Below are positions 1,588 to 28,633 of a stretch of DNA of 43,681 bases, in pieces (positions within the stretch are counted from its first letter, which is position 1; every line of letters starts with the position of its first letter). The notes below the pieces were generated by a model. The model made no database searches. It was not told the origin of the DNA and saw only the letters and a program-made list of their open reading frames with translations. This stretch comes from Bacteroidota bacterium. Its GTDB lineage: Bacteria; Bacteroidota; Bacteroidia; AKYH767-A; OLB10. A program made the translations under genes and the position numbers. Location of the stretch: positions 1 to 43,681 of the forward strand of contig CAUJFJ010000228.1 in assembly GCA_963169675.1 (NCBI GenBank). The letters are read 5' to 3'.

Positions 1588-2592
1588 ATGAAAGTGGCCG
1601 TTGTAGGTGCTACCGGGTTGGTTGGTACCATTCTATTAAAAGTATTGGAAGAACAAAATTTCCCGGTAACGGAACTTATTCCTGTGGCAACAGAGAAGTC
1701 TGTTGGTAAGGAAATTAAATACATGGGAAAATCTTACAAAATTGTTTCCATGGAAGATGCGATTCGCCAAAAACCGGATCTCGCTCTTTTCTCAGCCGGA
1801 GGGAATACCTCATTGCAATGGGCGCCGGAATTTGCGAAAGTAGGCACTGTGGTAATCGATAATTCATCAGCCTGGCGAATGGACCCCGATAAAAAACTGA
1901 TTGTACCGGAAATTAATGCAGATGCACTTACAGCTGATGATAAGATTATTGCCAATCCGAATTGCTCTACCATTCAAATGGTGATGGCTTTAGCACCATT
2001 GCATAAAATGTACGGTGTTCGCAGAATTGTAGTATCAACTTATCAGTCGGTGACAGGCACCGGTGCTAAGGCATTGCAGCAATTGGAAGATGAGAATATC
2101 GGAAAATCCACGGAAATGGTTTATAATTATCCTATTCACCGAAATGTTATTCCACAATGTGATGTATTTACCGATAATGGTTATACCAAAGAAGAAATGA
2201 AAATGGTGAATGAAACGCGAAAAATTTTGCGTGATGATTCCATTCGCATTACATCCACAACAGTTCGGGTTCCTGTGAAAGGAGGCCATTCAGAAGCGGT
2301 GAATGTAGAGTTGGGAAAAGAATTTACTATTGAAGACATACGTTCACTGCTTGAGAAAACACCGGGTATAAAAGTGGTTGATGATCCTGCCACGAACCAA
2401 TATCCTATGCCTATTCATGCAGAGGGCAAAGATGATGTATTTGTCGGCCGAATTCGTCGCGATGACAGTCAGCCCAACACATTGAACTTATGGATTGTTG
2501 CCGATAATCTGAGAAAAGGTGCAGCTACCAATGCGGTGCAGATTGCAAGCTGGATGGTGAAGCATCACTTGGTTGGAAAGCAGAAAGCATAA
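1588..2592 (+). CDS. asd: Aspartate-semialdehyde dehydrogenase
   Basis: Converts aspartyl-phosphate to aspartate semialdehyde with NADPH, the branch point to lysine/diaminopimelate, methionine and threonine; cytosolic. The 334 residues match the family length. The N-terminal dinucleotide-binding loop GATGLVG is at residues 7-13, the active-site cysteine is Cys126 in NPNCST, and the catalytic base is His234 in GGHSEAVN, with the substrate-binding arginine at Arg227. The DAP branch feeds peptidoglycan synthesis, which suits the envelope genes elsewhere in the window, but there is no operon link to them. The start ATG directly precedes the Rossmann strand KVAVVGATG, so the start is secure. Confidence 0.96.
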   Translation: MKVAVVGATGLVGTILLKVLEEQNFPVTELIPVATEKSVGKEIKYMGKSYKIVSMEDAIRQKPDLALFSAGGNTSLQWAPEFAKVGTVVIDNSSAWRMDPDKKLIVPEINADALTADDKIIANPNCSTIQMVMALAPLHKMYGVRRIVVSTYQSVTGTGAKALQQLEDENIGKSTEMVYNYPIHRNVIPQCDVFTDNGYTKEEMKMVNETRKILRDDSIRITSTTVRVPVKGGHSEAVNVELGKEFTIEDIRSLLEKTPGIKVVDDPATNQYPMPIHAEGKDDVFVGRIRRDDSQPNTLNLWIVADNLRKGAATNAVQIASWMVKHHLVGKQKA

Positions 2593-2644: not shown

Positions 2645-3457
2645 ATGAGACAAATATTCATCAAGAAAAAATTTGGTCCGAAGTCGGTTCGCTGGCGATT
2701 GCATGAAACTTCACGCATAGAAAGTTTCACCGATTCGGTATTTGCATTTGCCGTAACATTGCTGGTAGTTTCACTTGAAGTACCTGAAACGTTTAAAGAA
2801 CTTTCCTTATCGTTGAGTTCGATGTTCGGATTTGCGATTTGTTTTATGATGATCATGTTGATCTGGTTCGAGCAATATATTTTTTTCAGAAAGTACGGAT
2901 TGCAGGATACCAAAACTATTCTGATGAATTGCATTTTACTTTTTGTAGTTCTGTTTTATGTTTATCCGTTAAAATTTTTATTTGGGTTTCTTACCAGTGG
3001 AAATAAGGTGGAGCATCCCGATGGTTCGGTTGTGTACCGATTTGCCAATGATGGCGAAATTGGTCAGTTAATGGTAATTTATGGAGTGGGTTTTATGGTT
3101 CTCTATGGTGTATTTTTTATGATGAACCACCATGCATGGAAGCTACGTGATGAATTAAAGCTAAACAAACTGGAGGTGTTTAATACCCGAACCGCCATGA
3201 TGGGAAATGGAATTATGGTGCTGATCGGAACGTTATCTGTAACATTCGCTCTTCTTGATTTAAGCTCCAAATCGGCATATGCTTTTTTATCGGGTATGTG
3301 CTATGCATTAATCGGCCCTTCACTGGGAATATTTTACAATCGAAGAGCTAAGAAAATCAAAAAACTATTTACGCAAGAAGAAATTGATGAGGTAGCTAAT
3401 CAGGTGGTAACGATTACGGTTTCGGAGTTTAAAGATACAAGTGGTGTGTCTCAGTAA
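2645..3457 (+). CDS. TMEM175-family (DUF1211) potassium-channel-like membrane protein
   Basis: A 270-residue protein with about six hydrophobic segments. The first helix carries the family signature RIESFTDSVFAFA (Arg24, Phe28, Asp30), where most members have R-x(3)-FSD; here the Ser is Thr. Bacterial TMEM175 proteins are tetrameric K+ channels with one six-helix repeat per subunit, consistent with the single signature seen. The long hydrophilic N-terminus (about 20 residues before the signature) and the charged C-terminal tail probably face the cytosol. It lies 52 bases after asd; I see no clear promoter, so it could be cotranscribed. Channel activity is inferred from the family only. Confidence 0.8.
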   Translation: MRQIFIKKKFGPKSVRWRLHETSRIESFTDSVFAFAVTLLVVSLEVPETFKELSLSLSSMFGFAICFMMIMLIWFEQYIFFRKYGLQDTKTILMNCILLFVVLFYVYPLKFLFGFLTSGNKVEHPDGSVVYRFANDGEIGQLMVIYGVGFMVLYGVFFMMNHHAWKLRDELKLNKLEVFNTRTAMMGNGIMVLIGTLSVTFALLDLSSKSAYAFLSGMCYALIGPSLGIFYNRRAKKIKKLFTQEEIDEVANQVVTITVSEFKDTSGVSQ

Positions 3458-3500
3458 AAAGATGTGACTGCTTTATAATGTGCTAATTTGCTGATGCTTG

Positions 3501-3747
3501 CCCTGAGCAGAGCCGAAGGGTGCTGATGCGCCGCCCAGAGCGAAGTCGATGGGTGCTAATTTTTTGTTCCTGAGTAAAAAATGCGGTCCCCGCAAGGCAC
3601 GATGCGGGGTGACTGCAATTGATTTGGTAGTTTGATGATTCTTGCCTTGAGCTTGTCGAAAGGTGGTAGTTTGGTGATTTGTGTTCCCTAGCCAAAAGAT
3701 GACACTGCACTTGAGTTGAAAGCGCTGCCCTGAGCGAAGTCGAAGGG
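3501..3747. repeat. Four copies of a REP-like CCCTGAGC...GAAGGG repeat
   Basis: Copies lie at 3501-3520, 3534-3553, 3645-3663 and 3728-3747; the last is CCCTGAGCGAAGTCGAAGGG. The third has the variant centre GAGCTTGTCGAA. Each is an imperfect palindrome (CCCT...AGGG) that could form a short hairpin. Further copies occur at 7967-7985 (reverse orientation) and 28367-28386, so this is a dispersed family confined to intergenic DNA. Confidence 0.8.
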
Positions 3748-3862
3748 TTGAAGGTTGAAAGTTGTAAGTTGGGGGATTCAGGCAGAATGAAATTTCGTTT
3801 TGCACTTATGATTTATTTTGGTGCTGCCAAAATAGGTGGTTTTTCGTTCTCAAGATGATTTT

Positions 3863-3896
3863 ATTGAATAGCGATTAACAAGAATTGAAAACTGAA
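3863..3896 (+). repeat. 34-base dispersed repeat, copy 1
   Basis: This stretch (beginning ATTGAATAGCGATTAACAAG) matches 6159-6192 at 30 of 34 positions in the same orientation. The two copies lie on either side of the T9SS gene pair. Confidence 0.75.
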
Positions 3897-3927
3897 GAAC
3901 GACATATTATTCGGTTGGAAACAAAAA

Positions 3928-3955
3928 ATCCTAAATTCTTAATCCTTAATCCTTA
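3928..3955 (+). repeat. Heptamer array ATYCTTA, four units
   Basis: Successive 7-base units read ATCCTAA, ATTCTTA, ATCCTTA, ATCCTTA. Related arrays lie at 4127-4147 and 6133-6160, each preceded by an ACAAAA tract. Confidence 0.75.
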
Positions 3956-3966
3956 ATTGAATCTCT

Positions 3967-4018
3967 CCCTCTCCAGCCCGAAATATTCCACGGAGGAAGA
4001 TGCTAATGCTGGAGAGGG
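3967..4018. repeat. Perfect 11-bp inverted repeat with 30-base loop
   Basis: CCCTCTCCAGC at 3967-3977 pairs with GCTGGAGAGGG at 4008-4018. There is no T-tract after it, so it is not a standard terminator for the gene ending at 3457. It resembles a REP/BIME-like intergenic palindrome. Confidence 0.65.
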
Positions 4019-4126
4019 CAGGGGTGAGGCGGAGTGAGAAGCAGAATGAGAATGAGAAAGGGGAAGAAACAGGAACAGACTCAAAAACAGAAGGAGAAGA
4101 AATTTCCTGTTGAGCAGAAACAAAAA

Positions 4127-4147
4127 ATCCTTAATCCTTAATTCTTT
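4127..4147 (+). repeat. Heptamer array ATYCTTA, three units
   Basis: Units ATCCTTA, ATCCTTA and ATTCTTT end 15 bases before the start of the T9SS gene at 4163, so the array lies inside that gene's promoter region. Confidence 0.7.
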
Positions 4148-4150
4148 TCG

Positions 4151-4158
4151 TATTTTAG
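4151..4158 (+). promoter_or_regulatory. Weak -7 box (TATTTTAG) of the T9SS gene
   Basis: TATTTTAG differs from TAnnTTTG at one position and ends 4 bases before the ATG at 4163, which would make the transcript essentially leaderless. It lies directly behind the heptamer array. Confidence 0.35.
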
Positions 4159-4162
4159 CCTC

Positions 4163-5665
4163 ATGAAGTTATTCCGGACAACATTTTTAATCATTGTTCT
4201 CAGTATCATCTCTTGTTGGGTGCAGGCACAAAACAGAGGGAATATTTGGTGCTTTGGTGATTCTGCAGGTATCGATTTTAATTCTTTAATAAATCCCCAA
4301 GCAATAAATTCTGGATTGAGAACTCGGGGTAGTTGTGTTTCGGTTAGTGACTCCTCTGGAAATCTTCAGATGTATGCATTCACAAGAGCAACAATCCCAG
4401 GCAATACCACCAAGATTTTTAATCAACAAAATCAACTTATTCAAAATGGGGATAATATTGTTGGGGAGGGTTGGTATCATGAGTTGATCACATTCCCAAA
4501 GCCTGGAACCGATTCGATGTGTTACATTTTTTCGGTTGGTGTGGCAGGAAGTAGTCAATATGGTTTATATTATTCAGTGGTAGATCTGAAGGCCAACGGA
4601 GGTCTTGGTGCTGTGATTCAAAAAAATATGATGGTAATGCCGGATGAACAGGCGGACTGTATTAGTGCTGTGAAGCACGGCAATGGTAAGGATTGGTGGG
4701 TAGTGGGGCGGAGACTACAACATTCTCAATTGATTTGGAATAACGAATATTATGTCGTGTTGATTACTCAGTCAGGCGTTTCCTTGCCTTCATTTCAAAC
4801 AATTGGCTCGTTAAATAAAACTGGATTTGGCAGAATAAGTTTTTCTCCTTCGGGTGATACGTTGTTATTTACAAATGTAGGCCAGGTTATAGAATATTTT
4901 CAATTTGACCGGTGCACAGGAGTATTGAGCAATCCAGTTACAATCAGACCAGTTGCAACAACTTACAGTGATTGGACCTGGAGTAATGAATTCTCTTCCG
5001 ATGGCCGTTTCATTTATACCAGTACAAGTAAAGATACCACCCAATTGTTTCAATACGATTTGCAATCAACCAACCCACTGGCAACACGTACCACTTTGTA
5101 TCAGAGTAACTTCCCAAGATATGCAGGAGGTGATGTAAAACGAGGCCCTGATGGAAAAATTTACTTCAGTATTGCCTATGTGAACACCGGTGTGTCGTAT
5201 CCTTATCCGGATACAGTTTATAACAATTATAACATGAATTTAAGTGTTATAAATGCTCCCGACAGTTTAGGTGCAGCTTGTAACTTTCAGCCCTACAGTT
5301 TTTATCTTGGTGGGAAGCGAACCTATTATGGATTGCCCAATAACCCCGATTACTTTCTGGGTCCTAAAATTGGTAGTCCATGCGATACAATTACAGCAAT
5401 TTCAGAAGCAAGTGAAATTCCGGTCATAAGTAACATTTATCCAAATCCGGGCATCGGACCAGTTACAATTAATTACTTTCTGTCCAATGGGAAGCAAGGT
5501 AAACTGCAGATCTACAATGCCCTTGGAGAACTTGTTTATGAGCAACAATTAGCTCGATATACTTACATGCAGACTTTGGATTTGAGTAAATTACCGCAAG
5601 GAATGTATTTATTTAAATTGCAAAGTGGAAATTATGTTACCTTTAAAAAATGGATCAAACAATGA
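4163..5665 (+). CDS. T9SS-secreted protein with C-terminal type A sorting domain
   Basis: 500 residues. The N-terminal ~22 residues (hydrophobic core, then VQAQ) form a Sec signal peptide. The middle (about 25-410) contains spaced repeats such as NIWCFGDSAGIDFN, GRISFSPSGDTLLFT, SDGRFIYTSTS and KRGPDGKIYFSIA, which look like strands of a beta-propeller. The last ~75 residues form the Por secretion tail: SNIYPNPGIGPVTINY, LQIYNALGELVYEQ and LPQGMYLFKLQSG, ending in a basic KKWIKQ. Such tails direct passage through the T9SS and are cleaved or anchored by sortase PorU. It overlaps a second secreted gene by four bases. The propeller's ligand is unknown. The pair sits between two repeat-rich spacers, hinting at a variable locus. 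Confidence 0.87.
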   Translation: MKLFRTTFLIIVLSIISCWVQAQNRGNIWCFGDSAGIDFNSLINPQAINSGLRTRGSCVSVSDSSGNLQMYAFTRATIPGNTTKIFNQQNQLIQNGDNIVGEGWYHELITFPKPGTDSMCYIFSVGVAGSSQYGLYYSVVDLKANGGLGAVIQKNMMVMPDEQADCISAVKHGNGKDWWVVGRRLQHSQLIWNNEYYVVLITQSGVSLPSFQTIGSLNKTGFGRISFSPSGDTLLFTNVGQVIEYFQFDRCTGVLSNPVTIRPVATTYSDWTWSNEFSSDGRFIYTSTSKDTTQLFQYDLQSTNPLATRTTLYQSNFPRYAGGDVKRGPDGKIYFSIAYVNTGVSYPYPDTVYNNYNMNLSVINAPDSLGAACNFQPYSFYLGGKRTYYGLPNNPDYFLGPKIGSPCDTITAISEASEIPVISNIYPNPGIGPVTINYFLSNGKQGKLQIYNALGELVYEQQLARYTYMQTLDLSKLPQGMYLFKLQSGNYVTFKKWIKQ

Positions 5666-5928
5666 AATATTTTACACTGATAATTCTATTGGTTTTTACT
5701 ACAGGAATTTCTAATGCACAGCAGCCTGAGATACCACCTGAAACGCCATGTTTTACCAAACAAAAAGTCGACAGTATTAATGCAGCAAATATGTTGAAGC
5801 TGGAAGCTATTGTTCCGGTATTCATTGAATGGTATGTTTACGAAGGACAGACTGAAATATATTCCGGACCGCCAAATGTGGTGTCAATTGTAAATATAAA
5901 AATCGCTGAAACTTGTCCGGAAGAATGA
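5662..5928 (+). CDS. Small secreted protein coupled to the T9SS gene
   Basis: 89 residues starting at the ATG at 5662, which overlaps the upstream TGA (ATGA), so translation is probably coupled. A start 12 bases further upstream is possible but would put MDQT before a clean signal peptide. Residues 1-20 (MKYFTLIILL, then ISNAQQ) are a signal peptide, leaving a mature protein of about 69 residues with two cysteines (in TPCFTK and ETCPEE) that could form a disulfide. It has no sorting tail and no domain I recognise. Because it is coupled to a T9SS cargo gene, an accessory or partner role is plausible, but that is only inference. Confidence 0.6.
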   Translation: MKYFTLIILLVFTTGISNAQQPEIPPETPCFTKQKVDSINAANMLKLEAIVPVFIEWYVYEGQTEIYSGPPNVVSIVNIKIAETCPEE

Positions 5929-6132
5929 ATCTTATTCAATGGTTTGACATAAAAACATCCAAATCCATCGATAAATGAATTTAAAATACAAAGCTCAAAC
6001 TGGAATTTGTGCAAGATAGTATTTCAGAAAAATGTATTTCTCCCACTGAATTCTGGTCACTGCAAGTAGCTTTAGCTCTGATGCGGGGTAATTTATCATA
6101 TTGACGAATTTCCTTCTACGTAGAGATACAAA

Positions 6133-6160
6133 ATCCTTAATCTTTAATTCTTAATCCTAT
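6133..6160 (+). repeat. Heptamer array ATYCTTA, four units
   Basis: Units ATCCTTA, ATCTTTA, ATTCTTA, ATCCTAT. It merges directly into copy 2 of the 34-base repeat, whereas at the left spacer the order is reversed (34-base element first, array later). Confidence 0.7.
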
Positions 6161-6192
6161 TGAACAGCGATTATCAAGAATTAAAAAGTGAA
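6159..6192 (+). repeat. 34-base dispersed repeat, copy 2
   Basis: Begins ATTGAACAGCGATTATCAAG and matches 3863-3896 at 30 of 34 positions in direct orientation, 2.3 kb away across the T9SS gene pair. Confidence 0.75.
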
Positions 6193-6304
6193 TAATGGCA
6201 ATTGTGTCATATACAAAATTATTTTCTGCGCAGAATTTAATCTATCCTCTATCATTTATAATTTATCATTTTAACGAAGTTTCCTTCTGAGAAGAAAAAA
6301 TAGC

Positions 6305-7090
6305 CTACTTCGTTTTCGATGTCAATGGATTGGCCAGACCAGAATAACCCTTGAGATCCATTTTAATGGAGCCGACCAGAATTTCTGCTTCAGCACGCAC
6401 GACAATTCTGTTTTTGTCGTCGGTTACCCAAATGGTCATGTCTTCTTCTTCTTTAAAAACACGTCCTTCAAGAAGCATTGGACGAAATTTAATGCAATTA
6501 AAAGTTCCGAAGGTGGTCTTGATTTTTTCTTTACCAACGTATTTAACATTCATGCTAAATACCTCATCATCGAGATATGCATTAATTGGAAATACATCGC
6601 CGGCAGCTGCATGTGTAAAATCGAGTGTGCGGGCATAATAAAAAGCTGAAACCAAATCCTGAACATATTCAGGAACAGGAACCGTCATTTTTTCAGATGA
6701 AGCCGTTTTTTTATAATGGTTAAAAGTTACATTCTGATTAATGGTATAGCCACCTTCATCAACTCTTCTGATAAAAATCCAGGGCATGATTGCTTCGGTA
6801 TCAATGTAACTTTCGTAACGGTCGCGGACTTTAAAAAACCAATCGAAGGCACCCTTAGTTCTTCCGGTACCTACCACATGAAAAGTTTTGCGCGATCCCA
6901 CGGGATGTAACTCATCTTTGACTTCCAGAATTGCTTCACCGGCATCCATGAAACCATAGTGAATTCGATACTTCAAAATTTCACCTGCTTTAAAAGCTTC
7001 ATTCTTAACATTACGGAATTTATCCTGCGCTGGCGCAGATTGCCATAACAGGATTAAAAGCAGAAGGGATTTCAGGTGCAAATATTTCAT
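6305..7090 (-). CDS. Exported DUF3108 protein
   Basis: 261 residues from the ATG at 7090. An upstream in-frame TTG at 7120 would add ten residues ahead of an obvious signal peptide (MKYLHLKSLLLLILL, cleavage after APAQ), so the ATG is preferred. The mature protein follows the DUF3108 pattern: an early AGEILKYRIHYGFMDAGEA segment, a central VGTGRTKGAFDWFFKVRDRYESY block, then LVSAFYYARTLDF and a C-terminal beta-rich part with ITIWVTDD-like strands and a final GSIKMDLKGY. The family is exported to the periplasm and has no established biochemical role. It lies 45 bases after scpB on the same strand and is probably cotranscribed with it. Confidence 0.85.
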   Translation of the reverse strand: MKYLHLKSLLLLILLWQSAPAQDKFRNVKNEAFKAGEILKYRIHYGFMDAGEAILEVKDELHPVGSRKTFHVVGTGRTKGAFDWFFKVRDRYESYIDTEAIMPWIFIRRVDEGGYTINQNVTFNHYKKTASSEKMTVPVPEYVQDLVSAFYYARTLDFTHAAAGDVFPINAYLDDEVFSMNVKYVGKEKIKTTFGTFNCIKFRPMLLEGRVFKEEEDMTIWVTDDKNRIVVRAEAEILVGSIKMDLKGYSGLANPLTSKTK

Positions 7091-7135
7091 AGGAAAAGGA
7101 TATAGCAAATGGTGTTCCAAAAATAAATGCCCTGC

Positions 7136-7882
7136 TTATGCTTGATTCTCAGGGTCTTCTGCATTGGTCTCTTCTTCCGACTCCTCACCTTGCTGAGAAA
7201 CAGTCTCTGAATCGGAATCCGGTTCATTTTCAGGGAATGCTGCATCACTCACTTCTTCAATTACTGAAGGTTCCTGGTCATCGGAAGCAGTTTCGAGTTC
7301 AACCGGAATATTTTCTTCAATACCAAGCGGGAGTCCGATTTCATTGGCATCTAGCGATTGAATGTCTTTCAGTTTAGGAAGGTCTTTAACAGAGCGCAAT
7401 CCAAAGTGATCCATAAAATTCTTGCTGGTAGCATACAATAATGGTTTTCCGGGACCATCACTTTTTCCGGCAATTACAATCAATTCTTTTTCCAGCAATT
7501 TTTGAATCGAATAATCGCAACTTACACCACGGATATGCTCCAGTTCAGGTTTCGAGATGGGTTGTTTGTAAGCAATAATAGCCAGTGTTTCGAGTGCTGC
7601 TGTAGAGAGACGTTTTTTCTCTTTCAACTGCAGCATCACATGAATGGTAGCATGAAATTCTTTTTTACTCAGAAATTGAAAACCACCGGCAATTTCATTC
7701 AATTCATAAGAAAATTCTTCAGATGCATACTTTACTTTAAGCTCATCAGTTATGGCAATGATATCATCTTTTTTCAGATCCCAGCCATAAACAGCCTTAA
7801 GACACGAAATCATTTCATCAGGAGTGATGGCCTGTTCAGTAGTGAAAATAAGCGCTTCAATGTGTTGTTTAAGAAGTTTCAT
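7136..7882 (-). CDS. scpB: Segregation and condensation protein B
   Basis: ScpB dimers bind the kleisin ScpA and the SMC ATPase to form the bacterial condensin complex. The first ~180 residues contain the two winged-helix domains; the typical motifs LKQHIEALIFTTEQAI, LSTAALETLAIIAYKQPISK and RGVSCDYSIQKLLEKELI are present. The last ~70 residues are a strongly acidic, low-complexity tail (EPDSDSETVSQQGEESEEE), common but variable in this phylum. Total length is 248 residues. No scpA lies next to it, unlike in Firmicutes. The start ATG at 7882 begins MKLLKQHIEAL, matching the family N-terminus. Confidence 0.94.
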   Translation of the reverse strand: MKLLKQHIEALIFTTEQAITPDEMISCLKAVYGWDLKKDDIIAITDELKVKYASEEFSYELNEIAGGFQFLSKKEFHATIHVMLQLKEKKRLSTAALETLAIIAYKQPISKPELEHIRGVSCDYSIQKLLEKELIVIAGKSDGPGKPLLYATSKNFMDHFGLRSVKDLPKLKDIQSLDANEIGLPLGIEENIPVELETASDDQEPSVIEEVSDAAFPENEPDSDSETVSQQGEESEEETNAEDPENQA

Positions 7883-7966
7883 TTTTATTATTATTCGATT
7901 TTTAAATACTCTAATTTTTTGTCACAAAATAGTGTCAATTCCTTTTGACACCATATCACTGCTAAA

Positions 7967-7985
7967 CTTTCGGCTCCGCTCAGGG
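7967..7985 (-). repeat. REP-like repeat, reverse-oriented copy
   Basis: CTTTCGGCTCCGCTCAGGG is the reverse complement of the CCCTGAGC...GAAGGG family seen at 3501-3747, with two changes. It lies just before the heptamer array at 7990. Confidence 0.7.
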
Positions 7986-7989
7986 CGGC

Positions 7990-8073
7990 ACTGATTACTG
8001 CTCACTGCTCACTATTCACTGATTACTGCTCACTGCTCACTGCTCACTGGTCACTGCTCACTGATCAGTGCTC
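7990..8073 (+). repeat. Heptamer array ACTGCTC, twelve units, abutting the leuS stop
   Basis: Twelve consecutive 7-base units: six are ACTGCTC and the others differ by one to three bases (ACTGATT, ACTATTC, ACTGGTC, ACTGATC, AGTGCTC). The array ends one base before the leuS stop codon at 8075-8077. There are no spacers of CRISPR size. Short tandem heptanucleotide repeats of this kind are known as STRRs in cyanobacteria; here two unrelated heptamer families occur within 4 kb. Confidence 0.85.
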
Positions 8074-8074
8074 A

Positions 8075-10834
8075 CTACAGTACTACGTTAACAATTCTCC
8101 CCGGAACTACAATCACTTTTTTAGGTGTATTCCCTTCAAGATATTTTTTCATTTCAGCCGATTGCAACACTTCGCTTTCCAGTTGTTCTTTCGTCAGATT
8201 TAACGGAAACGTAAGTTTAAATCGTGTTTTGCCATTAACGGAAACAGGATACTCAAATTCATCTTCAATAAGGTATTCAGGATTTACTTCGGGGAATCGT
8301 GCAGTTGTTACGGATTCGGTATTTCCTGCCAGATGCCACAGTTCTTCGGCAATATGAGGTGCAAAGGGAGAAATAATGATGCTGAGTGGCACCAGTATTT
8401 CACGTTTATTACATTTCAAATCGGTTAACTCATTCACACAAATCATGAAGGTGCTGACGGATGTGTTGAATGAAAACCGTTCAATATCATCGGTTACTTT
8501 CTTAATGGTTTTATGCAGTACTTTCAGCTCAGCTTTTGTTGCGGGCTCATCCGATAACTGGAAGTTTCCACTTGCAAAATAGAGTCGCCATAATTTTTTC
8601 AGGAAACCACTTACACCTGTAATGCCATTTGTGTTCCATGGTTTACTCTGTTCAATAGGTCCCAGGAACATTTCATAAAGTCGCAGACAATCGGCGCCAT
8701 ATTGTTCGATAATCAAATCGGGGCTAACCACATTCCATTTCGACTTCGACATTTTTTCGACTTCATTTCCACAGATGTATTTTCCATCTTCCAAAATGAA
8801 TTCGGCGTTTTTAAATTCATCGCGCCAAGCCATAAAAGCTTTCACATCGAGTACATTGTTGTTGACAATGTTTACATCCACATGAAGTGCAGTTGTATCA
8901 TAATTTTTTCTCAGGTTATAGCTGACAAATTTATTAGTACCATTTATGCGATAGGCAAAGCAAGATGTCCCCTGAATCATTCCCTGATTGATCAGTTTTT
9001 TTGCAGGTTCCTGAACGGGTATAATTCCAAGATCGAACAGCACCTTGGTCCAGAAGCGAACATAAAGCAAGTGTCCTGTTGCATGTTCAGAACCTCCGAG
9101 ATACAGATCTACTTCCTTCCAGTAATTCATAGCTTCAGCGGATGCAATTGCTGAATCATTTTGCGCATCCATATAGCGGAGAAAATACCATGAAGACCCT
9201 GCCCATCCCGGCATGGTTGTAAGTTCATATTCGTATATGCCCTGATATTTCCAGTAGGTTGCTCTTCCGAGTGGTGGTTCACCGGATTCGGTAGGAAGAA
9301 ACTTGTTTATTTCAGGAAGTACCAGTGGTAATTCGTTTTCCGGAATTGGATATGGCAATCCGTTTTTATAGTAAATAGGAATAGGTTCACCCCAATAGCG
9401 CTGACGTCCGAATACGGCATCTCGTAAACGATAATTAATTCTTTTTTCTCCCTTTCCGGCAGCTGCAATTTTATCAATAGCCTTTGAAATTGCTTCTTTG
9501 GCAGTGAGACCATTCAGGAAATCACTGTTCACCATGATGCCATCCTTCGATTCATAAGCATCCTGAGAAAGGTCACCACCCTGAACAACTTCTTTTATTT
9601 CAATTCCAAAATGTTTGGCAAATGCATAGTCACGGCTATCATGTCCGGGTACTGCCATTACGGCACCGGTTCCATATCCTGCAAGCACATAATCGCCAAC
9701 CCAAATCTGAATTTTTTCTCCTGTAAAAGGATGTATAACATAACTTCCGGTAAACTGGCCCGTAATTTTTTTAACATCGGCCATCCGTTCCCGCTCCGAG
9801 CGGTTTTTTGCATAGGTGATATAGTCGTCGACTAATTTCGTATATTCAGAGGTCGTTAGTGATGCTACCAGTTCATGTTCCGGTGCAATGGTTACGAAAG
9901 TAACACCAAAGATTGTATCGGGCCGCGTAGTAAATACTTCTATGAATTCTTTTTTGCCGTCAATCTGAAAACGAATCAATGCGCCTTCCGATTTTCCGAT
10001 CCAGTTGCGTTGTGCTTCTTTCAGAGAATCACTCCAGTCGATAGTATCCAAACCTGTGAGTAACCGTTCGGCATATGCACTGATGCGAAGACTCCACTGC
10101 TTCATTTTTTTTCGTTCCACAGGATACCCACCTCGTTCCGAAACGCCATCTTTCACTTCTTCATTGGCCAAAACAGTTCCCAATGCAGGGCACCAGTTCA
10201 CCATTGCTTCCGAGAGGTAAGCCAGACGATAGTTCAACAAAATATTTTGTTGTTCCTGTTCTGAAAATGATTTCCATTGAGCAGCCGTAAACGGTTCGCC
10301 GGGTTCACAGCATGCATTAACGGAGGCATTACCTTTTGCAGCAAAGTGATTTAACAAAGTTGCAATAGGTTCTGCTTTTTGCGAATCGTTATTGAACCAG
10401 GAATCAAATAATTTTAAGAAGATCCATTGCGTCCATTTGTAATATGCAGGGTCGCAGGTGCGTACTTCCCTGGACCAGTCGAATGAGAATCCGATGCGAT
10501 CGAGTTGTTCGCGGTAACGGCCAATATTTGCCTGTGTAGTAACTGCAGGATGTTGTCCGGTTTGAATAGCATATTGCTCGGCCGGTAATCCAAAGGCATC
10601 ATAGCCCATTGGGTGCAGCACATTAAAACCTTTTTGTTTTTTGTAACGCGAAAAAATATCGGAGGCGATATATCCTAATGGGTGACCGACATGTAATCCG
10701 GCACCGGAAGGGTAGGGAAACATATCGAGCACATAATATTTTGGAAGAGCAGGATTTTCAACAACCTTATAAGTTTGTTGTTCTTTCCAGTGCGCCTGCC
10801 AGCGAGTTTCAATATCAATAAAATTATAATCCAT
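8075..10834 (-). CDS. leuS: Leucyl-tRNA synthetase
   Basis: Class I synthetase that charges tRNA-Leu. The 919 residues include the HIGH-type motif HVGH at 48-51 and KMSKS at 694-698. The CP1 editing domain carries TTRPDTIFG and GHDSRD. Two insertions stand out: one in the zinc-binding region around [14 protein letters not shown], and one just before KMSKS around [16 protein letters not shown]; both are frequent in Bacteroidota LeuRS. The C-terminal domain ends in [12 protein letters not shown]. The start ATG at 10834 opens with [13 protein letters not shown], normal for the family. It is the first gene of a minus-strand group and has a possible structured leader. A heptamer array begins right after the stop. 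Confidence 0.97.
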
Positions 10835-10860
10835 AAAATGAACAGTGCAATAATCCTGAC

Positions 10861-10920
10861 TAGTGGTTCGGGATGACTCCCGTAATGAGTGGCCGGGGCA
10901 ACAGCTGAACCCCGGAAAAA
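10861..10920 (-). promoter_or_regulatory. Candidate structured leader of leuS
   Basis: Two adjacent hairpins lie between leuS and its possible promoter: CGGGA/TCCCG with a 4-base loop (10869-10873 and 10878-10882) and CCGGGG/CCCCGG with an 11-base loop (10893-10898 and 10910-10915). They are the most GC-rich stretch of the spacer and would be in the 5' UTR of leuS. Neither is followed by a T-tract, and no T-box features were recognised. Function unknown. Confidence 0.35.
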
Positions 10921-10928
10921 TGAGGGTA

Positions 10929-10936
10929 CGAAGATA
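10929..10936 (-). promoter_or_regulatory. Possible -7 box (TATCTTCG) of leuS
   Basis: On the minus strand TATCTTCG differs from TAnnTTTG at one position. It would give a leader of about 90 bases that includes both hairpins. Confidence 0.35.
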
Positions 10937-11023
10937 GGAAAAAGGGAGGTTGTCTGATCACGGAATTGTTAATAATCCATTCAATTCATGCTTAGAAAGG
11001 AGGGATAAATGCAGTAAAAAAGC

Positions 11024-11031
11024 TACTTTTG
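11024..11031 (+). promoter_or_regulatory. -7 box (TACTTTTG) of the ftsX gene cluster
   Basis: Exact match to TAnnTTTG, 18 bases before the ATG at 11050. It likely drives ftsX, DUF3098, uppP and truB, which are spaced by 4-29 bases. Confidence 0.6.
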
Positions 11032-11049
11032 CGCCATCTTAATCCGTAA

Positions 11050-11925
11050 ATGGCACCAGAAGGTAACAAAATGGCCCGGAAAACCCTCCGGACCTCCTAT
11101 ATTTCGACTGTAGTCAGCATTTCGCTGGTACTTTTTATGATTGGTACACTTGGTGTACTTGTTTTGCATGCCCGTAAAGTTTCCAATTATGTGAAAGAGA
11201 ATATTCAATTGTCGGTTATGCTGTTGCCCGATGCCGGAATGGCCCAGGTTGAGAGTTTACTGAAGGTATTGGAGAAATCGGAGTATGTCAAATCAGCAAC
11301 TTATGTTACTAAAGATGAGGCTGCTGCGAAGTTAAAGGAAGATTTGGGTGAAGATTTCGTGGAGTTTTTGGGCTACAATCCGCTGTTAGGGTCCATTGAT
11401 GTGAAGATGAAAGCACAATATGCTGATTCTGAAAATATTGCAGCATTAAAGGCTAAAATTACAGCTTCATCGGTGGTGAAGGAGGTGTATTATCAGCAAT
11501 CGTTGTTGGATGATATTAACAAAAACATGAAAACGCTGGCCCTTGTAATTCTGGGATTCAGCGCCTTACTCTTTTTCATTGCGGCCGCACTTATCAATAA
11601 CACCATTCGTTTGGCATTATATTCCAGACGCTTGCTTATAAAAAGTATGAAACTGGTGGGCGCAACCCGTGGATTTATCCGCAAACCGTTTGTAATCAGT
11701 GGCATCATGCAGGGTATTTACGGAGCCATAATTGCAAATTTATTGTTGCTGGGATTGTTGTATTTCGCCAAGAAGGAAATTCCGGATCTGGTTGAAATAC
11801 AAGACTATGAGATGGTTCTTACCCTAATGGGAGGAGTCATTCTGGCTGGAATATTTATTTCGGGAGTTAGTACTTTCTTCGCTGTTAACAAGTATCTTAG
11901 CCGGAATACACAGGATTTATATTAA
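11050..11925 (+). CDS. ftsX: Cell division protein FtsX (ABC transporter permease)
   Basis: FtsX pairs with the ATPase FtsE at the division site and transmits ATP-driven movement to periplasmic EnvC-type activators of murein amidases. The 291 residues show the FtsX layout: a short cytosolic N-terminus (RKTLRTSYISTVVSISLVL), TM1 at about 20-38, an extracytoplasmic domain at about 40-160, and three more helices at about 160-185, 217-240 and 255-280. The C-terminal permease part contains LIKSMKLVGATRGFIRKPF, the typical FtsX/MacB coupling segment. FtsE is not adjacent. An EnvC-like protein is encoded at 41110-42339 in the same window. An internal ATG at 11071 (MARKTL) is a possible alternative start. 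Confidence 0.93.
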   Translation: MAPEGNKMARKTLRTSYISTVVSISLVLFMIGTLGVLVLHARKVSNYVKENIQLSVMLLPDAGMAQVESLLKVLEKSEYVKSATYVTKDEAAAKLKEDLGEDFVEFLGYNPLLGSIDVKMKAQYADSENIAALKAKITASSVVKEVYYQQSLLDDINKNMKTLALVILGFSALLFFIAAALINNTIRLALYSRRLLIKSMKLVGATRGFIRKPFVISGIMQGIYGAIIANLLLLGLLYFAKKEIPDLVEIQDYEMVLTLMGGVILAGIFISGVSTFFAVNKYLSRNTQDLY

Positions 11926-11954
11926 TAAACGATAGGATCATTAATAAGACGACC

Positions 11955-12194
11955 ATGTCAAAAGAAAAAGTAAAAGCAGATTTTGCTTTCGGAAAGATTA
12001 ACTACACGTTGATGCTTTCGGGATTAGGAATGATAATTTTAGGCTTCTTCCTGATGTCGGGTGGTGGTACTAAAGATCCGAATGTTTTCAGTGAAGAAGT
12101 TTTTAGTCCCTTGCGTATTACTGTTGCTCCACTTTTGGTGTTAGCAGGTTTCGCACTGGAGATTTATGCTATTGTAAAAAAAGCTAAAGACTAA
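11955..12194 (+). CDS. DUF3098 small membrane protein
   Basis: 79 residues with two predicted membrane helices, at about 17-34 (NYTLMLSGLGMIILGFFLM) and 52-73 (LRITVAPLLVLAGFALEIYAIV), joined by a short loop with GGGTKDPNVFSEEVFSP. This arrangement is the DUF3098 family, found almost only in Bacteroidota and usually between ftsX and uppP as here. No function is established; the position suggests a link with division or cell-wall lipid recycling. It begins 29 bases after ftsX and ends 9 bases before uppP, so cotranscription is likely. Confidence 0.88.
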   Translation: MSKEKVKADFAFGKINYTLMLSGLGMIILGFFLMSGGGTKDPNVFSEEVFSPLRITVAPLLVLAGFALEIYAIVKKAKD

Positions 12195-12203
12195 TCCGGA
12201 GTT

Positions 12204-13004
12204 ATGACCTTACTGGAGGCCATCGTATTAGGTATTGTTGAAGGTATTACCGAATTCCTGCCGATTTCATCAACGGGACACATGATTATTGCTTCTTCTC
12301 TGATGGGAATCGCTGAAGATAATTTTACCAAAACGTTTACGGTTTCCATTCAGTTCGGAGCAATTTTGTCGGTGCTGTTCCTCTATTGGAAACGTTTTTT
12401 TCAGTCGATGGATTTTTATTATAAATTGTTTGTTGCCTTTTTACCTGCAGCAATTTTCGGAAAATTATTGAATGATTTTATTGATTCGTTACTGGGCAAT
12501 GTTGCAGTTGTAGCTTATATGTTGCTTGCCGGTGGAATCTTTCTGATATTTATGGATCATCTCCTCAAAGAGAAAAAAGAAGGCGAAGAAGATGCTCCGA
12601 TTACTTACTTAACTGCCTTCAAAATCGGGATGTTTCAGGTTATTGCTATGATACCCGGAGTGTCACGGTCCGCAGCAACTATCATTGGTGGTTTAACGCA
12701 GGGACTGACCCGCAAAACTGCAGCGGAATTTTCATTTTTTCTGGCAGTGCCAACTATGTTTGCTGCAACTGTTTATAAAGTTTATGAATTTTATAAATCG
12801 GGAGTTACTGTTGAAGAGGGACAAATTACTTTGCTGGTTGTAGGAAATATTGTAGCTTTTATCGTAGCTGTTTTAGCTATCAAATCGTTTATCGGTATCG
12901 TCACCAAATACGGATTAAAGGTGTATGGATATTACCGGATTGCTGTGGGAGTTTTAATTATTGTGCTCATGGTAATGGGTGTCGACTTACAAATTGTCGA
13001 TTAA
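12204..13004 (+). CDS. uppP: Undecaprenyl-diphosphatase (UppP/BacA)
   Basis: Integral membrane enzyme that removes one phosphate from undecaprenyl diphosphate, renewing the lipid carrier for peptidoglycan and other surface polymers; overproduction gives bacitracin resistance in other bacteria. The 266 residues carry both signature regions: [15 protein letters not shown] at about 13-27, and [17 protein letters not shown] at about 150-167, with the catalytic Glu, Ser and Arg residues. About eight hydrophobic helices are visible. The gene follows the DUF3098 gene by 9 bases and precedes truB by 4 bases, so it is inside the ftsX operon. Confidence 0.96.
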
Positions 13005-13008
13005 CAAC

Positions 13009-13689
13009 ATGGATTTCGAAAAGGGAGAGGTACTCCTGTTTGATAAGCCACTCAAGTGGACTTCATTCGATTTGGTTCGGAAGGTTCGCGGATTGATCAG
13101 AATAAAAAAAGTTGGTCATGCAGGAACGCTTGATCCATTGGCAACGGGGTTGATGATTATCTGCACCGGAAAGATGACCAAGCAAATTGATACTTTTCAG
13201 GCGCAGATAAAAGAATATACCGGCACGTTCAAATTAGGAGCAACCACACCATGCTATGATATGGAGCAGCCGGAAGATGCCACTTTTCCAACGGAACATA
13301 TCAGTGAACAAATGATTCGGGAAATGGTGAATCAATTTACCGGAGTGATTTCGCAATTGCCACCACCACACAGTGCGGTGAAAATTGATGGGAAACGTGC
13401 TTATGAGCTGGCACGGAAAGGCAAGGAGGTGAAGATGAAATCGAGGGAGGTGACCATTGAAGCTTTTGAAATTACCGGAATCAATATGCCGGAAGTAAGC
13501 TTCCGGATTGTTTGTTCAAAGGGGACTTATATCCGGTCAATAGCACATGATTTTGGGAAGGTTTTGGGATCGGGGGCTTACCTGACTTCGCTTTGTCGCA
13601 CCCGCATTGGGGAATTCCGGTTGGAGAATGCCATGCAGCTAGCCGATTTTTCGGCTTTGGTATCTACGCAAAGCACTAAAAGTGAATAA
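13009..13689 (+). CDS. truB: tRNA pseudouridine synthase B
   Basis: Makes pseudouridine 55 in the T-arm of tRNAs. The start is the ATG at 13009, four bases after the uppP stop; an in-frame GTG further upstream would lie within uppP and add ten residues with no family match. The 226-residue product begins MDFEKGEVLLFDKPLKWTSF, a typical TruB start. The catalytic aspartate is Asp42 in HAGTLDPLATG, followed by TGKMTKQ. The later motifs QLPPPHSAVKIDGKRAYELAR and CSKGTYIRSIAHDFG are both present. It is shorter than E. coli TruB (about 314 residues) because the C-terminal PUA-like domain is absent. Confidence 0.95.
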   Translation: MDFEKGEVLLFDKPLKWTSFDLVRKVRGLIRIKKVGHAGTLDPLATGLMIICTGKMTKQIDTFQAQIKEYTGTFKLGATTPCYDMEQPEDATFPTEHISEQMIREMVNQFTGVISQLPPPHSAVKIDGKRAYELARKGKEVKMKSREVTIEAFEITGINMPEVSFRIVCSKGTYIRSIAHDFGKVLGSGAYLTSLCRTRIGEFRLENAMQLADFSALVSTQSTKSE

Positions 13690-13793
13690 ATTACGATTAT
13701 TCTAATTGATACGGTTAACAAAGTCGCCCTTTTCGTTTGCAGGCTCAGTATCAAATAATTGAGGCATTTGGTCGAAAAAGGTCTTTCTTGACG

Positions 13794-13801
13794 TATCTTT
13801 G
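13794..13801 (+). promoter_or_regulatory. -7 box (TATCTTTG) of queA
   Basis: Exact TAnnTTTG match, with a TTTG at 13767-13770 upstream at a slightly long spacing of 23 bases. The leader to the ATG at 13847 is about 40 bases. Confidence 0.6.
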
Positions 13802-13846
13802 CACCCCGATATAAAGAAATCCGTAAGTTATCTTTAATCAATCATT

Positions 13847-14896
13847 ATGAAACTTTCTCAATTCAAATTCAACATCAGTGACAGCCTTTTGGCTACGCAT
13901 CCTTCATCGAGTCGTGATGAGTCACGTTTAATGGTAGTCGATCGCAAAACAGGAAAGATCGAGCACAAAGTATTTAAAGATATCATCAATTATTTTGGAG
14001 AAGATGATTGCATGATCCTGAATAACACCCGCGTTTTCCCTGCTCGCTTATATGGCAACAAGGAAAAAACCGGAGCAAAGATCGAAGTGTTTTTACTTCG
14101 TGAATTAAATAAGGAAAGCAAACTTTGGGATGTTTTGGTTGACCCTGCAAGGAAAATCAGAATTGGAAATAAACTTTACTTCGGAGAGAATGATATGTTG
14201 GTTGCTGAGGTAATCGACAATACCACTTCAAGAGGTCGTACACTTCGTTTTTTATTCGATGGTACAGCAGAAGAGTTTCGCAAAACCATTGAGAGTTTAG
14301 GACACACTCCATTACCGAAATACATCAAGAGAAAAGCAGAGCCTGCAGATAAGGAACGTTATCAGACGGTTTATGCAAAGCATGAAGGCGCAGTTGCTGC
14401 TCCAACAGCAGGATTGCATTTTAGCCGTGAATTGCTAAAGCGTCTCGAGTTGAAAGGTGTGAATATGGCAGAGGTTACTTTGCATGTGGGACTTGGTACA
14501 TTCCGTCCTGTTGAGGTGGAAGATTTAACCAAGCACAAGATGGATTCTGAGCAATTCATTATTCAGGCTGATGCTGCTGATACGGTTAACAAAGCACGTG
14601 CTAAGAAAAAACTTATTTGTGCAGTTGGTACTACCAGTATGCGTGCTGTTGAGTCATCGGTATCTACAACCGGTGAATTGAAGCCTGCATCGGGATGGAC
14701 AAATAAATTTATTTTTCCTCCTTACGATTTCAGTGTTGCAAATTGTATGGTTACGAATTTCCACATGCCTGAATCAACCTTGTTGATGATGACAGCTGCA
14801 TTTGGCGGATACGATTTGATCATGCATGCCTACAAAGTAGCGGTAAAAGAAAAATACCGTTTCTTCAGTTATGGTGATGCGATGCTTATTCTGTAA
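13847..14896 (+). CDS. queA: S-adenosylmethionine:tRNA ribosyltransferase-isomerase
   Basis: Transfers and isomerises the ribosyl part of SAM onto preQ1 at tRNA position 34, giving epoxyqueuosine. The 349 residues have the normal length. Conserved blocks seen: [19 protein letters not shown] near the N-terminus, [12 protein letters not shown] at about 61-72, [10 protein letters not shown] at about 182-191, [13 protein letters not shown] near 205-217 and the late [17 protein letters not shown]. No other queuosine genes are in the window. It has its own promoter and is followed by ispD after 51 bases. Confidence 0.96.
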
Positions 14897-14947
14897 GTAG
14901 CTTCTTACGGATGTGATCCATTAAGTAACATTTTCAGAAAAACCGAT

Positions 14948-15613
14948 TTGAAAAAATCTGCAATTATTGTTGCCGGCGGATCCGGTGTAAGGATGGGCAG
15001 CGATGTCCCCAAGCAGTTTTTGCTCCTTAACGATATTCCGGTTTTAATAAGAACACTTCAGCTTTTTCATGCTGTGGCAGATGAAGTAGTTTTGGTATTG
15101 CCCCGGGCGCATTTCGATTATTGGGATAAATTGAGTAATCAGTTTAGTATCAATAAATCTGATTATCAACTGGTTGCCGGAGGTTCATCCCGTACGGAAT
15201 CGGTCATTAACGGATTAGAAAAGGTGAGTGGTCCGGGATTGGTAGCAATTCATGATGCGGTTCGGCCTTTAGTTTCGAAGGAGTTGATTGTCCATGCTTT
15301 CGAGTCTGCTGCAAAATATGGGAGTGCTATCCCGGTCATCCCCGTAAGGGAAACCTTGCGGAAAGTTGAAGATAGCAGTTCCGAGGTTGTAGACAGAGAG
15401 CAACACCGATTGGTGCAAACACCGCAATGTTTTGATATTGAAGTAATTAAAAATGCTTACAAGCAATTTTCAGGCACTACATTCACCGATGATGCGGGTG
15501 TTTTTGAGGCTGCAGGAAATACTATTCACCTGATTGAAGGCGAGCATTCGAACATAAAAATTACGTTTCCGACCGACCTCATTTTTGCTTCTGCGTGGCT
15601 AAATGCCAGATAA
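14948..15613 (+). CDS. ispD: 2-C-methyl-D-erythritol 4-phosphate cytidylyltransferase
   Basis: Third step of the MEP isoprenoid pathway (CTP plus MEP gives CDP-ME). 221 residues, starting at a TTG at 14948; no in-frame ATG occurs between the queA stop and this codon, and the product begins directly with the nucleotide-binding loop KKSAIIVAGGSGVRMG and PKQFL. Other family motifs are AIHDAVRPLVS (about 99-109), IPVRETLRKV and the late TQTPQ-like LVQTPQCFD followed by FTDDAGVFE. IspD supplies precursors for the undecaprenyl carrier recycled by UppP upstream, though the link is metabolic rather than an operon. No promoter of its own is clear, so read-through from queA is likely. Confidence 0.94.
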   Translation: MKKSAIIVAGGSGVRMGSDVPKQFLLLNDIPVLIRTLQLFHAVADEVVLVLPRAHFDYWDKLSNQFSINKSDYQLVAGGSSRTESVINGLEKVSGPGLVAIHDAVRPLVSKELIVHAFESAAKYGSAIPVIPVRETLRKVEDSSSEVVDREQHRLVQTPQCFDIEVIKNAYKQFSGTTFTDDAGVFEAAGNTIHLIEGEHSNIKITFPTDLIFASAWLNAR

Positions 15614-15674
15614 TCGTAATAAAATTCAATTTTAGACCTCATATATAATTCCCACGCAGTACTTTTACACAACG

Positions 15675-15686
15675 GGAAACGTTTCC
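15675..15686. promoter_or_regulatory. Perfect palindrome GGAAACGTTTCC, possible operator
   Basis: A perfect 12-bp palindrome around a central CG, about 118 bases before the -7 box of the carboxypeptidase gene and 62 bases after ispD. The AAACGTTT core is typical of operators bound by LacI-family repressors. No such regulator is encoded in the window. Confidence 0.35.
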
Positions 15687-15792
15687 ATTGCATTTACGTA
15701 TAACGGGAGTCGGTAGCAGGCATGTTTGATTTGAACATCAAAATGTTAGTAATCAATATGCTGTAGCAGAACATAGACCGGCTTTCTTTTAC

Positions 15793-15800
15793 TAATCTTG
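15793..15800 (+). promoter_or_regulatory. Possible -7 box (TAATCTTG) of the carboxypeptidase gene
   Basis: One mismatch to TAnnTTTG; ends 13 bases before the ATG at 15814. Confidence 0.4.
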
Positions 15801-15813
15801 CATTGCTGAAAAA

Positions 15814-17463: not shown

Positions 17464-17465
17464 TT

Positions 17466-18131: not shown

Positions 18132-18325
18132 AAAAGATACTAATAGGCAGCAAGCCTCAATTTGAGGACAGGTATTTCTGCTCTCATCCAAAAGTGGTCA
18201 GGGGGGATGACTACGGGGGGGATGAAAGTAGTTTATTATAGCACCTAAAAGTAGAGAAAAGGAAATAAAGTTCCAAATTTTTAGTTCTAAAGGCGTATTA
18301 AATCACACATTAATTACTGATTCGT

Positions 18326-20101: not shown

Positions 20102-20199
20102 TTCTCAAAGGTCTGATTTTAATGGGAGACGAGCCAAAAGGAAGTGGCTAATTTTGCAATTAATTGATATTTAGGTTGTTAGGACTTAGATTTTTGCCG

Positions 20200-20207
20200 T
20201 ATCTTTG
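20200..20207 (+). promoter_or_regulatory. -7 box (TATCTTTG) of rlmN
   Basis: Exact match to TAnnTTTG with GTTG at 20175-20178, 21 bases upstream. It lies inside the frame that could be extended from 20164, which argues that translation starts after it, at 20215. Confidence 0.65.
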
Positions 20208-20214
20208 CACTTCC

Positions 20215-24638: not shown

Positions 24639-24658
24639 CCTCACACCATTTGCACCGT

Positions 24659-28304: not shown

Positions 28305-28633
28305 ACAATTATCAGTGAACAGTTGCCATTGCTGCTCTGGTCGTATCCGAAGGGTTGAAAGCGCCGCCCTGAGCGAAGCCGATGGGTTCCGCCCTGAGTC
28401 TTCCGGTTGGTGCTTCGAAGTGTTGAGAGTTGAGTTTTTTGCTCTGAGATACATTTCTAGTTTAACAATTAATTTTGTATTTATAGCATCTCTCTCCTAA
28501 TCGCGCCAGCGAAATTCTCCGCGTCTCCCTAACTCTGCGTTCAAAAAATAGTCATAAGCAATTTGTCAATTGAGTAATTTCAAAGTTTAATTCCGATACT
28601 GAACTATCTTTGGCAAGGATTCGTTTTCAGTCT
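28305..28633. other. Intergenic region between convergent gpsA and aldehyde dehydrogenase genes
   Basis: 329 bases with no credible gene. It contains one REP-like copy (28367-28386) preceded by GTTGAAAGCGC, as in the copy at 3728, and a second, degraded copy starting at 28394. A stretch near 28510-28545 (CTCCGCGTCTCCCTAACTC) is GC-rich and unlike the surroundings. No clear terminator was found. Confidence 0.65.
28367..28386 (+). repeat. REP-like repeat copy CCCTGAGCGAAGCCGATGGG
   Basis: Differs at two positions from the copy at 3728-3747; similarity extends about 13 bases to the left (GTTGAAAGCGC then G). Confidence 0.75.

What the first reader, a model, noticed from the sequence alone, without database searches (positions are those of the whole stretch)
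3863..6296. T9SS gene pair bracketed by direct copies of the same intergenic repeats
The 34-base element at 3863-3896 recurs at 6159-6192 with 30/34 identity in direct orientation; ATYCTTA heptamer arrays occur on both sides (3928, 4127 and 6133), and the words AATTTCCT and ACAAAATCC recur around them. Only the two secreted genes lie between. Direct repeats on both sides could allow loss, gain or duplication of this cassette by recombination. The alternative is that such repeats are scattered in many spacers of this genome and the bracketing is incidental.
Basis: partly seen in the sequence, partly recalled or inferred. Interest (0 to 1): 0.5.

Follow-up and report, generated by a model that had tools for sequence, protein, structure and literature searches.

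The report
Slot-swapping secreted-protein genes in repeat islands
The repeats around this gene are ordinary for this genus, but they mark a slot whose secreted-protein gene differs between two sister species, and members of its family have swapped their central parts while keeping their starts and ends.

Summary
The repeats are real: 30 of 34 bases match, with heptamer arrays on both sides. They are parts of genus-specific repeat "islands" (34-nt element: 14 copies here, 17 in the sister species, none in 59 other genomes). The 34-nt bracket around this gene is not special (6 of 13 cross-comparisons score as well).

The locus is nonetheless variable. In the sister species (about 95% DNA identity) the two flanks lie on different contigs, end at the two islands, and abut other type IX secretion (T9SS) genes. 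In 11 outgroup loci the old neighbours are 18-199 nt apart.

The 500-aa gene belongs to a family of at least 21 copies here and 26 in the sister. Twelve equivalent slots could be compared: two keep their gene, two are empty here, eight hold different content. A second slot in the window (28305-28633) is empty here and filled in the sister. Promoter-leader, core and C-terminal domain assort independently: the three best of 260 cross-species leader matches are slot-mates whose cores are not orthologous. Homologous recombination or gene conversion is the best explanation; the islands' active role is unproven. Function and expression are untested.

The parts
1588..2592 (+). Aspartate-semialdehyde dehydrogenase gene (ASD), left neighbour; in outgroups it directly faces DUF3108
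   Evidence: Pfam; adjacency with 18-199 nt gap in 11 named loci
2645..3457 (+). TMEM175-like gene, present beside ASD in this genus only among the loci examined
   Evidence: Pfam; 100% aa in G001 C51; not found near the locus in 80 named loci
3457..4029 (+). Left repeat island (modules A, B, C, D; includes CCCTGAGCGAAGTCGAAGGG-type REPs and an inverted repeat with arms at about 3963-3980 and 4009-4029)
   Evidence: modules and copies elsewhere; homology with G001 C51 ends at 4029
3863..3896 (+). 34-nt element, copy 1
3928..3956 (+). ATYCTTA heptamer array
4099..4162 (+). Upstream module U with heptamer array 4127-4148 and TATTTTAG just before the ATG; with the leader it is shared with other family members
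4163..5665 (+). P1, 500-aa T9SS-secreted family member: leader residues 1-25, variable core about 26-400, sorting domain about 401-500 that is foreign to the rest of the family
5650..5928 (+). 92-aa ORF, more likely starting at 5662 (ATGA overlap with the P1 stop); orphan
6020..6158 (+). Right island, module F with heptamer array 6133-6154
6159..6192 (+). 34-nt element, copy 2; collinearity with G001 C11 begins at 6152
6158..6297 (+). Right island, module E
6305..7120 (-). DUF3108 gene, convergent right neighbour
28305..28633 (.). Second slot in the window: convergent junction that is empty here (only a partial A module at 28347-28387) and holds an island and a P1-family gene in G001 (L189 2756-5080)

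Best explanation
The window locus is one of many chromosomal slots, mostly convergent gene junctions filled with genus-specific repeat islands, that hold members of a large family of T9SS-secreted proteins. Slot content turns over fast. Homologous recombination or gene conversion, between paralogues or with DNA from related cells, exchanges the variable core, with the conserved promoter-leader on one side and the homogenised C-terminal domain on the other acting as homology arms. Whole cassettes are also gained, lost or replaced; the islands give insertion-tolerant DNA and probably extra homology. Shown: content differs between congeners, close relatives of one core sit in different slots, and leader, core and C-terminal domain assort independently. 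Inferred: RecA-type recombination as the agent, an active role of the islands, and diversification of a secreted or surface protein as the benefit.
For: Main locus: homology with G001 stops at the two islands and other T9SS genes lie there; P1 has no orthologue in G001 (47-52% best). Of 12 comparable slots 2 are kept, 2 are empty in G000, 8 have different content. Of 260 cross-genome leader comparisons ranks 1-3 are slot-mates (91.8, 88.6, 86.4%), yet their cores are only 52, 50 and 39% identical in aa, and relatives of two of those cores sit in other G001 slots (L110-L172 80%, L305-L276 97% aa core). Leader and core identity are uncorrelated over 378 pairs (r = 0.05), L109/L173 combine 97.7% core with 36.8% leader identity, and silent sites are homogenised over residues 401-500 but near saturation in the core. 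A 374-nt, 95.5% direct repeat brackets one G001 cassette whose slot is empty in G000.
Against: Only two genomes of the genus were available and both are drafts; at the main locus the G001 gap is not closed, and only 3 of 12 slots have both flanks on single contigs in both genomes. One of the four slot-mates with testable leaders (C10/C88) shows no leader conservation (46.0%, rank 244 of 260). The window gene's own 34-nt bracket is not special, own brackets beat all cross-comparisons in only 5 of 36 members, and core exchange needs no islands. In G000 only 6 of 15 islands are at convergent junctions by my ORF calls. The window gene's C-terminal domain is not the shared family type, so it is not a typical member.
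Confidence: 0.7

Rival explanations
1. Incidental bracketing only: repeats litter spacers of this genus, and the gene simply lies between two of them; the repeats play no part in gain, loss or exchange, which happen by ordinary insertion at tolerant convergent junctions.
For: 14 element copies and about 187 heptamer-triplet hits genome-wide; 6 of 13 cross-comparisons equal the window bracket; islands without family members are common; a 3.56-kb insert with a methylase-like gene sits in a G001 convergent junction without island modules.
Against: Breaks at the main locus coincide with the islands; own brackets exceed every cross-comparison in 5 of 36 members, up to 374 nt at 95.5%.
Confidence: 0.45
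2. Fast divergence in place: slot-mates are true orthologues whose cores diverged by diversifying selection, and no exchange took place.
For: Leaders and flanks of three slot-mates are orthologous in position; surface proteins can evolve fast (general knowledge).
Against: Slot-mate cores have silent-site identity of 32-55%, while genes kept in place have 62-68% and leaders 75-100% (few sites); relatives of L110 and L305 cores are found in other slots; two slots are empty.
Confidence: 0.07
3. Assembly or binning artefact: paralogues and repeats made chimeric contigs in one or both draft genomes.
For: Many family members lie at contig ends; both genomes are fragmented drafts (351 contigs and about 100 contigs).
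Against: Exact matches of 100 nt or more are shared by only 3 of 528 between-locus pairs; near leader-core junctions none exceeds 58 nt in the six pairs checked; a G001 project contig name carries k141, which suggests assembly with long words; the pattern is seen in both assemblies.
Confidence: 0.08
4. A site-specific system moves the cassettes: an integron-like integrase or a REP-associated transposase acts on the islands.
For: Islands hold palindromic modules and bracket cargo; two Y1_Tnp genes per genome exist.
Against: Three Y1_Tnp loci examined show no island modules; breakpoints inside genes at leader and sorting domain do not look like fixed attachment sites. No integrase search was made.
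Confidence: 0.08

Closest known systems
Domain rearrangement and allelic exchange of surface proteins in Porphyromonas gingivalis (PMC5266723; abstract and passages read)
   Same: Bacteroidota, T9SS-dependent surface proteins among those concerned, mosaics out of step with genome phylogeny, homologous exchange proposed.
   Different: There, allelic variants of particular genes; here, a dispersed family of 20 or more members whose cores change slot while leaders stay, inside repeat islands, in a genus known here only from metagenome assemblies.
Intergenic heptamer repeats of Beggiatoaceae, Cyanobacteria and some Bacteroidetes (PMC4679880; abstract, passages and section 12 read)
   Same: Heptamer direct repeats in spacers; in Bacteroidetes assemblages of several heptamer repeats and a suggested role in gene rearrangement; contigs that end in the repeats.
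   Different: Heptamer here is ATYCTTA, not TAACTGA, and is one module of a composite island; here gene turnover at the islands is shown between two congeners.
REP elements (PMC3733652; passages read)
   Same: Palindromic modules in many copies, found downstream of genes and between convergent ORFs.
   Different: Islands here are longer composites with non-palindromic modules; no transposase of the REP-associated type was found linked to them.
Cassette-type antigenic variation (gonococcal pilin, Borrelia vlsE and similar; recalled, not read)
   Same: Variable core between conserved arms, exchanged by recombination among paralogues.
   Different: No silent, leaderless donors were seen; the full-length members carry their own leader and sorting domain; there are no within-population data and no known host.

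Membership tests
T9SS type A cargo proteins | C-terminal sorting domain (TIGR04183 / PF18962) | tested here: met
   26 of 26 aligned members match
T9SS type A cargo proteins | T9SS machinery in the same genome | not tested
   No search for PorV, SprA and the like was made
Cassette-type antigenic variation system | Variable core between conserved homology arms with mosaic copies | tested here: met
Cassette-type antigenic variation system | One expression locus and silent donors without promoter or leader | tested here: not met
   The full-length members in alignment A1 (26) all carry a leader and a sorting domain; members cut by contig ends cannot be judged. So it is not filed as such a system
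Cassette-type antigenic variation system | Variation within one population | not testable with these tools
   No reads or strain sets available
REP/RAYT elements | High-copy palindromic modules, mostly 3' of genes or between convergent ORFs | tested here: inconclusive
   REP-like module A in 4 places of the window; convergent islands 15 of 17 in G001 but 6 of 15 in G000; GTAG/CGTC tags not tested
REP/RAYT elements | Y1 transposase gene flanked by the repeats | tested here: not met
   Two Y1_Tnp matches per genome; the three loci examined have no island modules; the fourth, weak match (C327) was not examined for this
Integron gene cassettes | Integron integrase and attC sites | not tested
   No integrase or attC search was made
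TAACTGA-type heptamer arrays | TAACTGA direct repeats just upstream of start codons | tested here: not met
   The heptamer is ATYCTTA; one array lies at 4127-4148, 14 nt before the P1 start, the others lie further off in the islands

The most novel reading that the evidence does not exclude
A dedicated diversification system: dispersed repeat islands serve as recombination platforms on which a T9SS surface-protein family exchanges its cores behind fixed promoter-leaders, so that the lineage continually re-pairs cores with expression signals; a many-locus relative of antigenic variation in a bacterium with no known host.
Probability: 0.25. Interest if true: 0.78.

Novelty: new variant of a known kind. 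Interest (0 to 1): 0.56.

Why it matters
It would show that core swapping behind fixed leaders, well known from host-adapted pathogens, also shapes secreted proteins of a Bacteroidota genus known here only from metagenome assemblies. It ties a poorly understood class of intergenic repeats in this phylum to concrete gene turnover, and makes the earlier suggestion that heptamer islands take part in gene rearrangement testable slot by slot.

Tried and rejected
Clean excision between the two 34-nt copies at the window locus: no genome with a single copy and rejoined flanks was found. Reciprocal empty slots at G000:C194 and G001:C1: first read as empty in G001 (a notebook entry, still says so), rejected after one search showed a long cargo ending in another family member (60% aa). 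Structure of P1: single-sequence prediction was useless (mean pLDDT 33), so no fold search was run. Solved-structure search: 0 hits at E 0.1. Pfam beta-propeller hits are weak (PD40 in 3 of 26, WD40 in 2 of 26, best E 0.009), so a propeller fold for the core is only a guess. Family members in the 80 named DUF3108 loci: none. Literature: of nine searches none listed a description of this family or of slot exchange of this kind; only open-licence papers are held, and I read parts of three.

Rows dropped: five superseded copies of loci (L111, L113, L114, L116, L117); members outside 470-560 aa or under 38% identity to P1 before (28 kept); 11 of 47 members without both flanks; members without the WCFG-type motif before (13 x 20 kept). 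The island counts use unfiltered ORFs, and the loci were chosen because they carry islands or family members.

Full report
WHAT WAS CHECKED. The 34-nt element at 3863-3896 and 6159-6192 matches at 30 of 34 positions in direct orientation. The heptamer arrays are at the stated places. Between them lie a 500-aa ORF with a T9SS type A sorting domain (P1) and a 92-aa ORF that overlaps its stop codon and has no match in 60 relatives. The window is one contig (C228) of a 3.87-Mb draft genome in 351 contigs (G000).

THE REPEATS ARE A GENUS TRAIT. With up to 3 mismatches the element has 14 copies in G000 and 17 in G001, the only same-genus relative among the 61 genomes searched, and none in the other 59. 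A triple ATYCTTA pattern has 187 hits in G000 against 70 for the reversed control. The elements are parts of islands several hundred bases long, with modules in a fairly constant order (A 3457-3580, B 3609-3720, C 3792-3913, D 3918-4029, F 6020-6158, E 6158-6297). Counting junctions with at least two kinds of module after removing T9SS cargo, 15 of 17 in G001 and 6 of 15 in G000 are convergent; for all adjacent gene pairs in the same loci the figures are 28 of 135 and 30 of 214. The G000 figure is weak and the ORFs are unfiltered.

THE WINDOW LOCUS DIFFERS IN THE SISTER. G001 is the sister genome; its contig C11 has the same length (18032 bases) as JAEUTI010000073.1, 'MAG: Bacteroidia bacterium isolate new MAG-325', whose DUF3108 gene matches at the same 98%. 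Window 6152-18291 is collinear with C11 at 94.8%, and collinearity starts at 6152, just before the second 34-nt copy. Window 1-4029 matches C51 and stops just after the left island. On the C11 side of DUF3108 lie a 461-aa T9SS gene and a large T9SS ORF cut by the contig start. On the C51 side, 796 bases without homology lead to an ORF cut by the contig end. The simplest reading is one locus with other content, but the gap is not closed. The 461-aa protein has no orthologue in G000 (best match partial, 41%). P1's best match in G001 is 47-52%, while flanking proteins are 98-100%. In 11 named loci the old neighbours ASD and DUF3108 are 18-199 nt apart, so TMEM175, islands and cargo look like later additions.

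A FAMILY, NOT A PAIR. P1 belongs to a large paralogue family. Of 30 members whose 3' neighbour could be named, 23 face a convergent gene; 17 more end at contig ends. In 12 of 47 the 5' neighbour is a T9SS gene on the same strand.

SLOTS. Twelve orthologous slots could be compared by flanking identity, written G000 contig / G001 contig. Kept in place: C75/C45 (90% aa; G000 has an extra member) and C196/C15 (88%). Empty in G000, filled in G001: window 28305-28633 (C95) and C306 (C8). Filled in both but with different members: C273/C79 (56% aa), C209/C16 (60%), C303/C3 (53%), C190/C40 (40%), C10/C88 (55%), C289/C59 (28%). Different cargo: C194/C1 (two members in G000; in G001 a long run of genes ending in another member, 60%) and the window slot itself. 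Both flanks lie on single contigs in both genomes only for window 28305-28633, C306/C8 and C273/C79; the others rest on one flank or on two contigs.

PARTS ASSORT INDEPENDENTLY. Among 260 cross-genome comparisons of leader plus upstream DNA, the top three (91.8, 88.6, 86.4%) are the slot-mates C209/C16, C273/C79 and C190/C40; the fourth slot-mate with testable leaders, C10/C88, ranks 244 (46.0%). The cores of the three are 52, 50 and 39% identical in aa with silent sites at 32, 40 and 55%, while the two kept genes have 85-88% aa and 62-68% silent identity in the core. The close relatives of two of these cores sit in other slots of G001: L110 with L172 (80% aa core) and L305 with L276 (97% aa core). 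Over 378 pairs of 28 members, leader and core identity are uncorrelated (r = 0.05), and the C-terminal domain averages 71% nt identity against 55% for the core; L109/L173 combine 97.7% core with 36.8% leader identity. Mean silent-site identity is 0.27-0.45 along residues 26-400 and 0.51-0.68 over 401-500. The window gene fits partly: its leader is 95.5% identical to that of L105, its core 55%, and its C-terminal domain is foreign to the family (43% on average).

WHAT THE REPEATS DO. One G001 member (L178) is bracketed by a 374-nt direct repeat of 95.5% identity, and the same slot is empty in G000, with a different short island. Own brackets beat all cross-comparisons in 5 of 36 members (L171, L173, the second member of L174, L175, L178), not in the window gene. 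The islands may thus be platforms for gain and loss or merely tolerant sites; the data do not decide. Y1_Tnp genes exist (two matches per genome) but the three loci examined show no island modules.

ARTEFACT CHECK. Between loci of one genome, exact matches of 100 nt or more occur in 3 of 528 pairs, and matches near leader-core junctions were at most 58 nt in the six pairs examined. Chimeric assembly is therefore unlikely, though not excluded.

PLACE AMONG KNOWN THINGS. Mosaic surface proteins are known in Porphyromonas gingivalis (PMC5266723, abstract and passages). Heptamer-rich spacers with a suggested role in rearrangement are known in other Bacteroidetes (PMC4679880, abstract, passages and section 12). 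REPs are known to favour convergent and unidirectional spacers (PMC3733652, passages). The combination seen here, leader kept in the slot and core moved among dispersed T9SS paralogues within repeat islands, was not listed by the searches.

Noticed in passing
window about 21255 (junction of ORFs 20164-21255 + and 21708-24644 -); L346 3120-6683: G001 carries a 3.56-kb insert here that G000 lacks: a 372-aa ORF and a convergent 574-aa ORF with a DNA-methylase-like motif (LDPACGEGELLLSLG, recalled as such), perhaps a restriction-modification pair. The junction is convergent but has no island modules.
   Followed up: partly
window 5650-5928: The 92-aa ORF downstream of P1 is an orphan: found in 1 of 61 genomes, its own. 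It overlaps the P1 stop by ATGA at 5662-5665.
   Followed up: partly
window 4140-4165 and the leaders of family members (L105, L110, L172, L173, L272): TATTTTAG or a close variant lies a few bases before the ATG, right after heptamer units in several; it resembles a Bacteroidota -7 box (recalled), which would make the mRNAs nearly leaderless.
   Followed up: no
L189 2730-2880; window about 28310-28340: A tandem repeat of about 16 nt (ATCAGTGAACAGTT type) is expanded in G001 and nearly single in G000 at the edge of the second slot.
   Followed up: no
L109, L303, L309, L308, L273, L279: Family members often lie directly downstream of a much larger T9SS gene, some with overlapping ends, suggesting operons that may move together.
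   Followed up: partly
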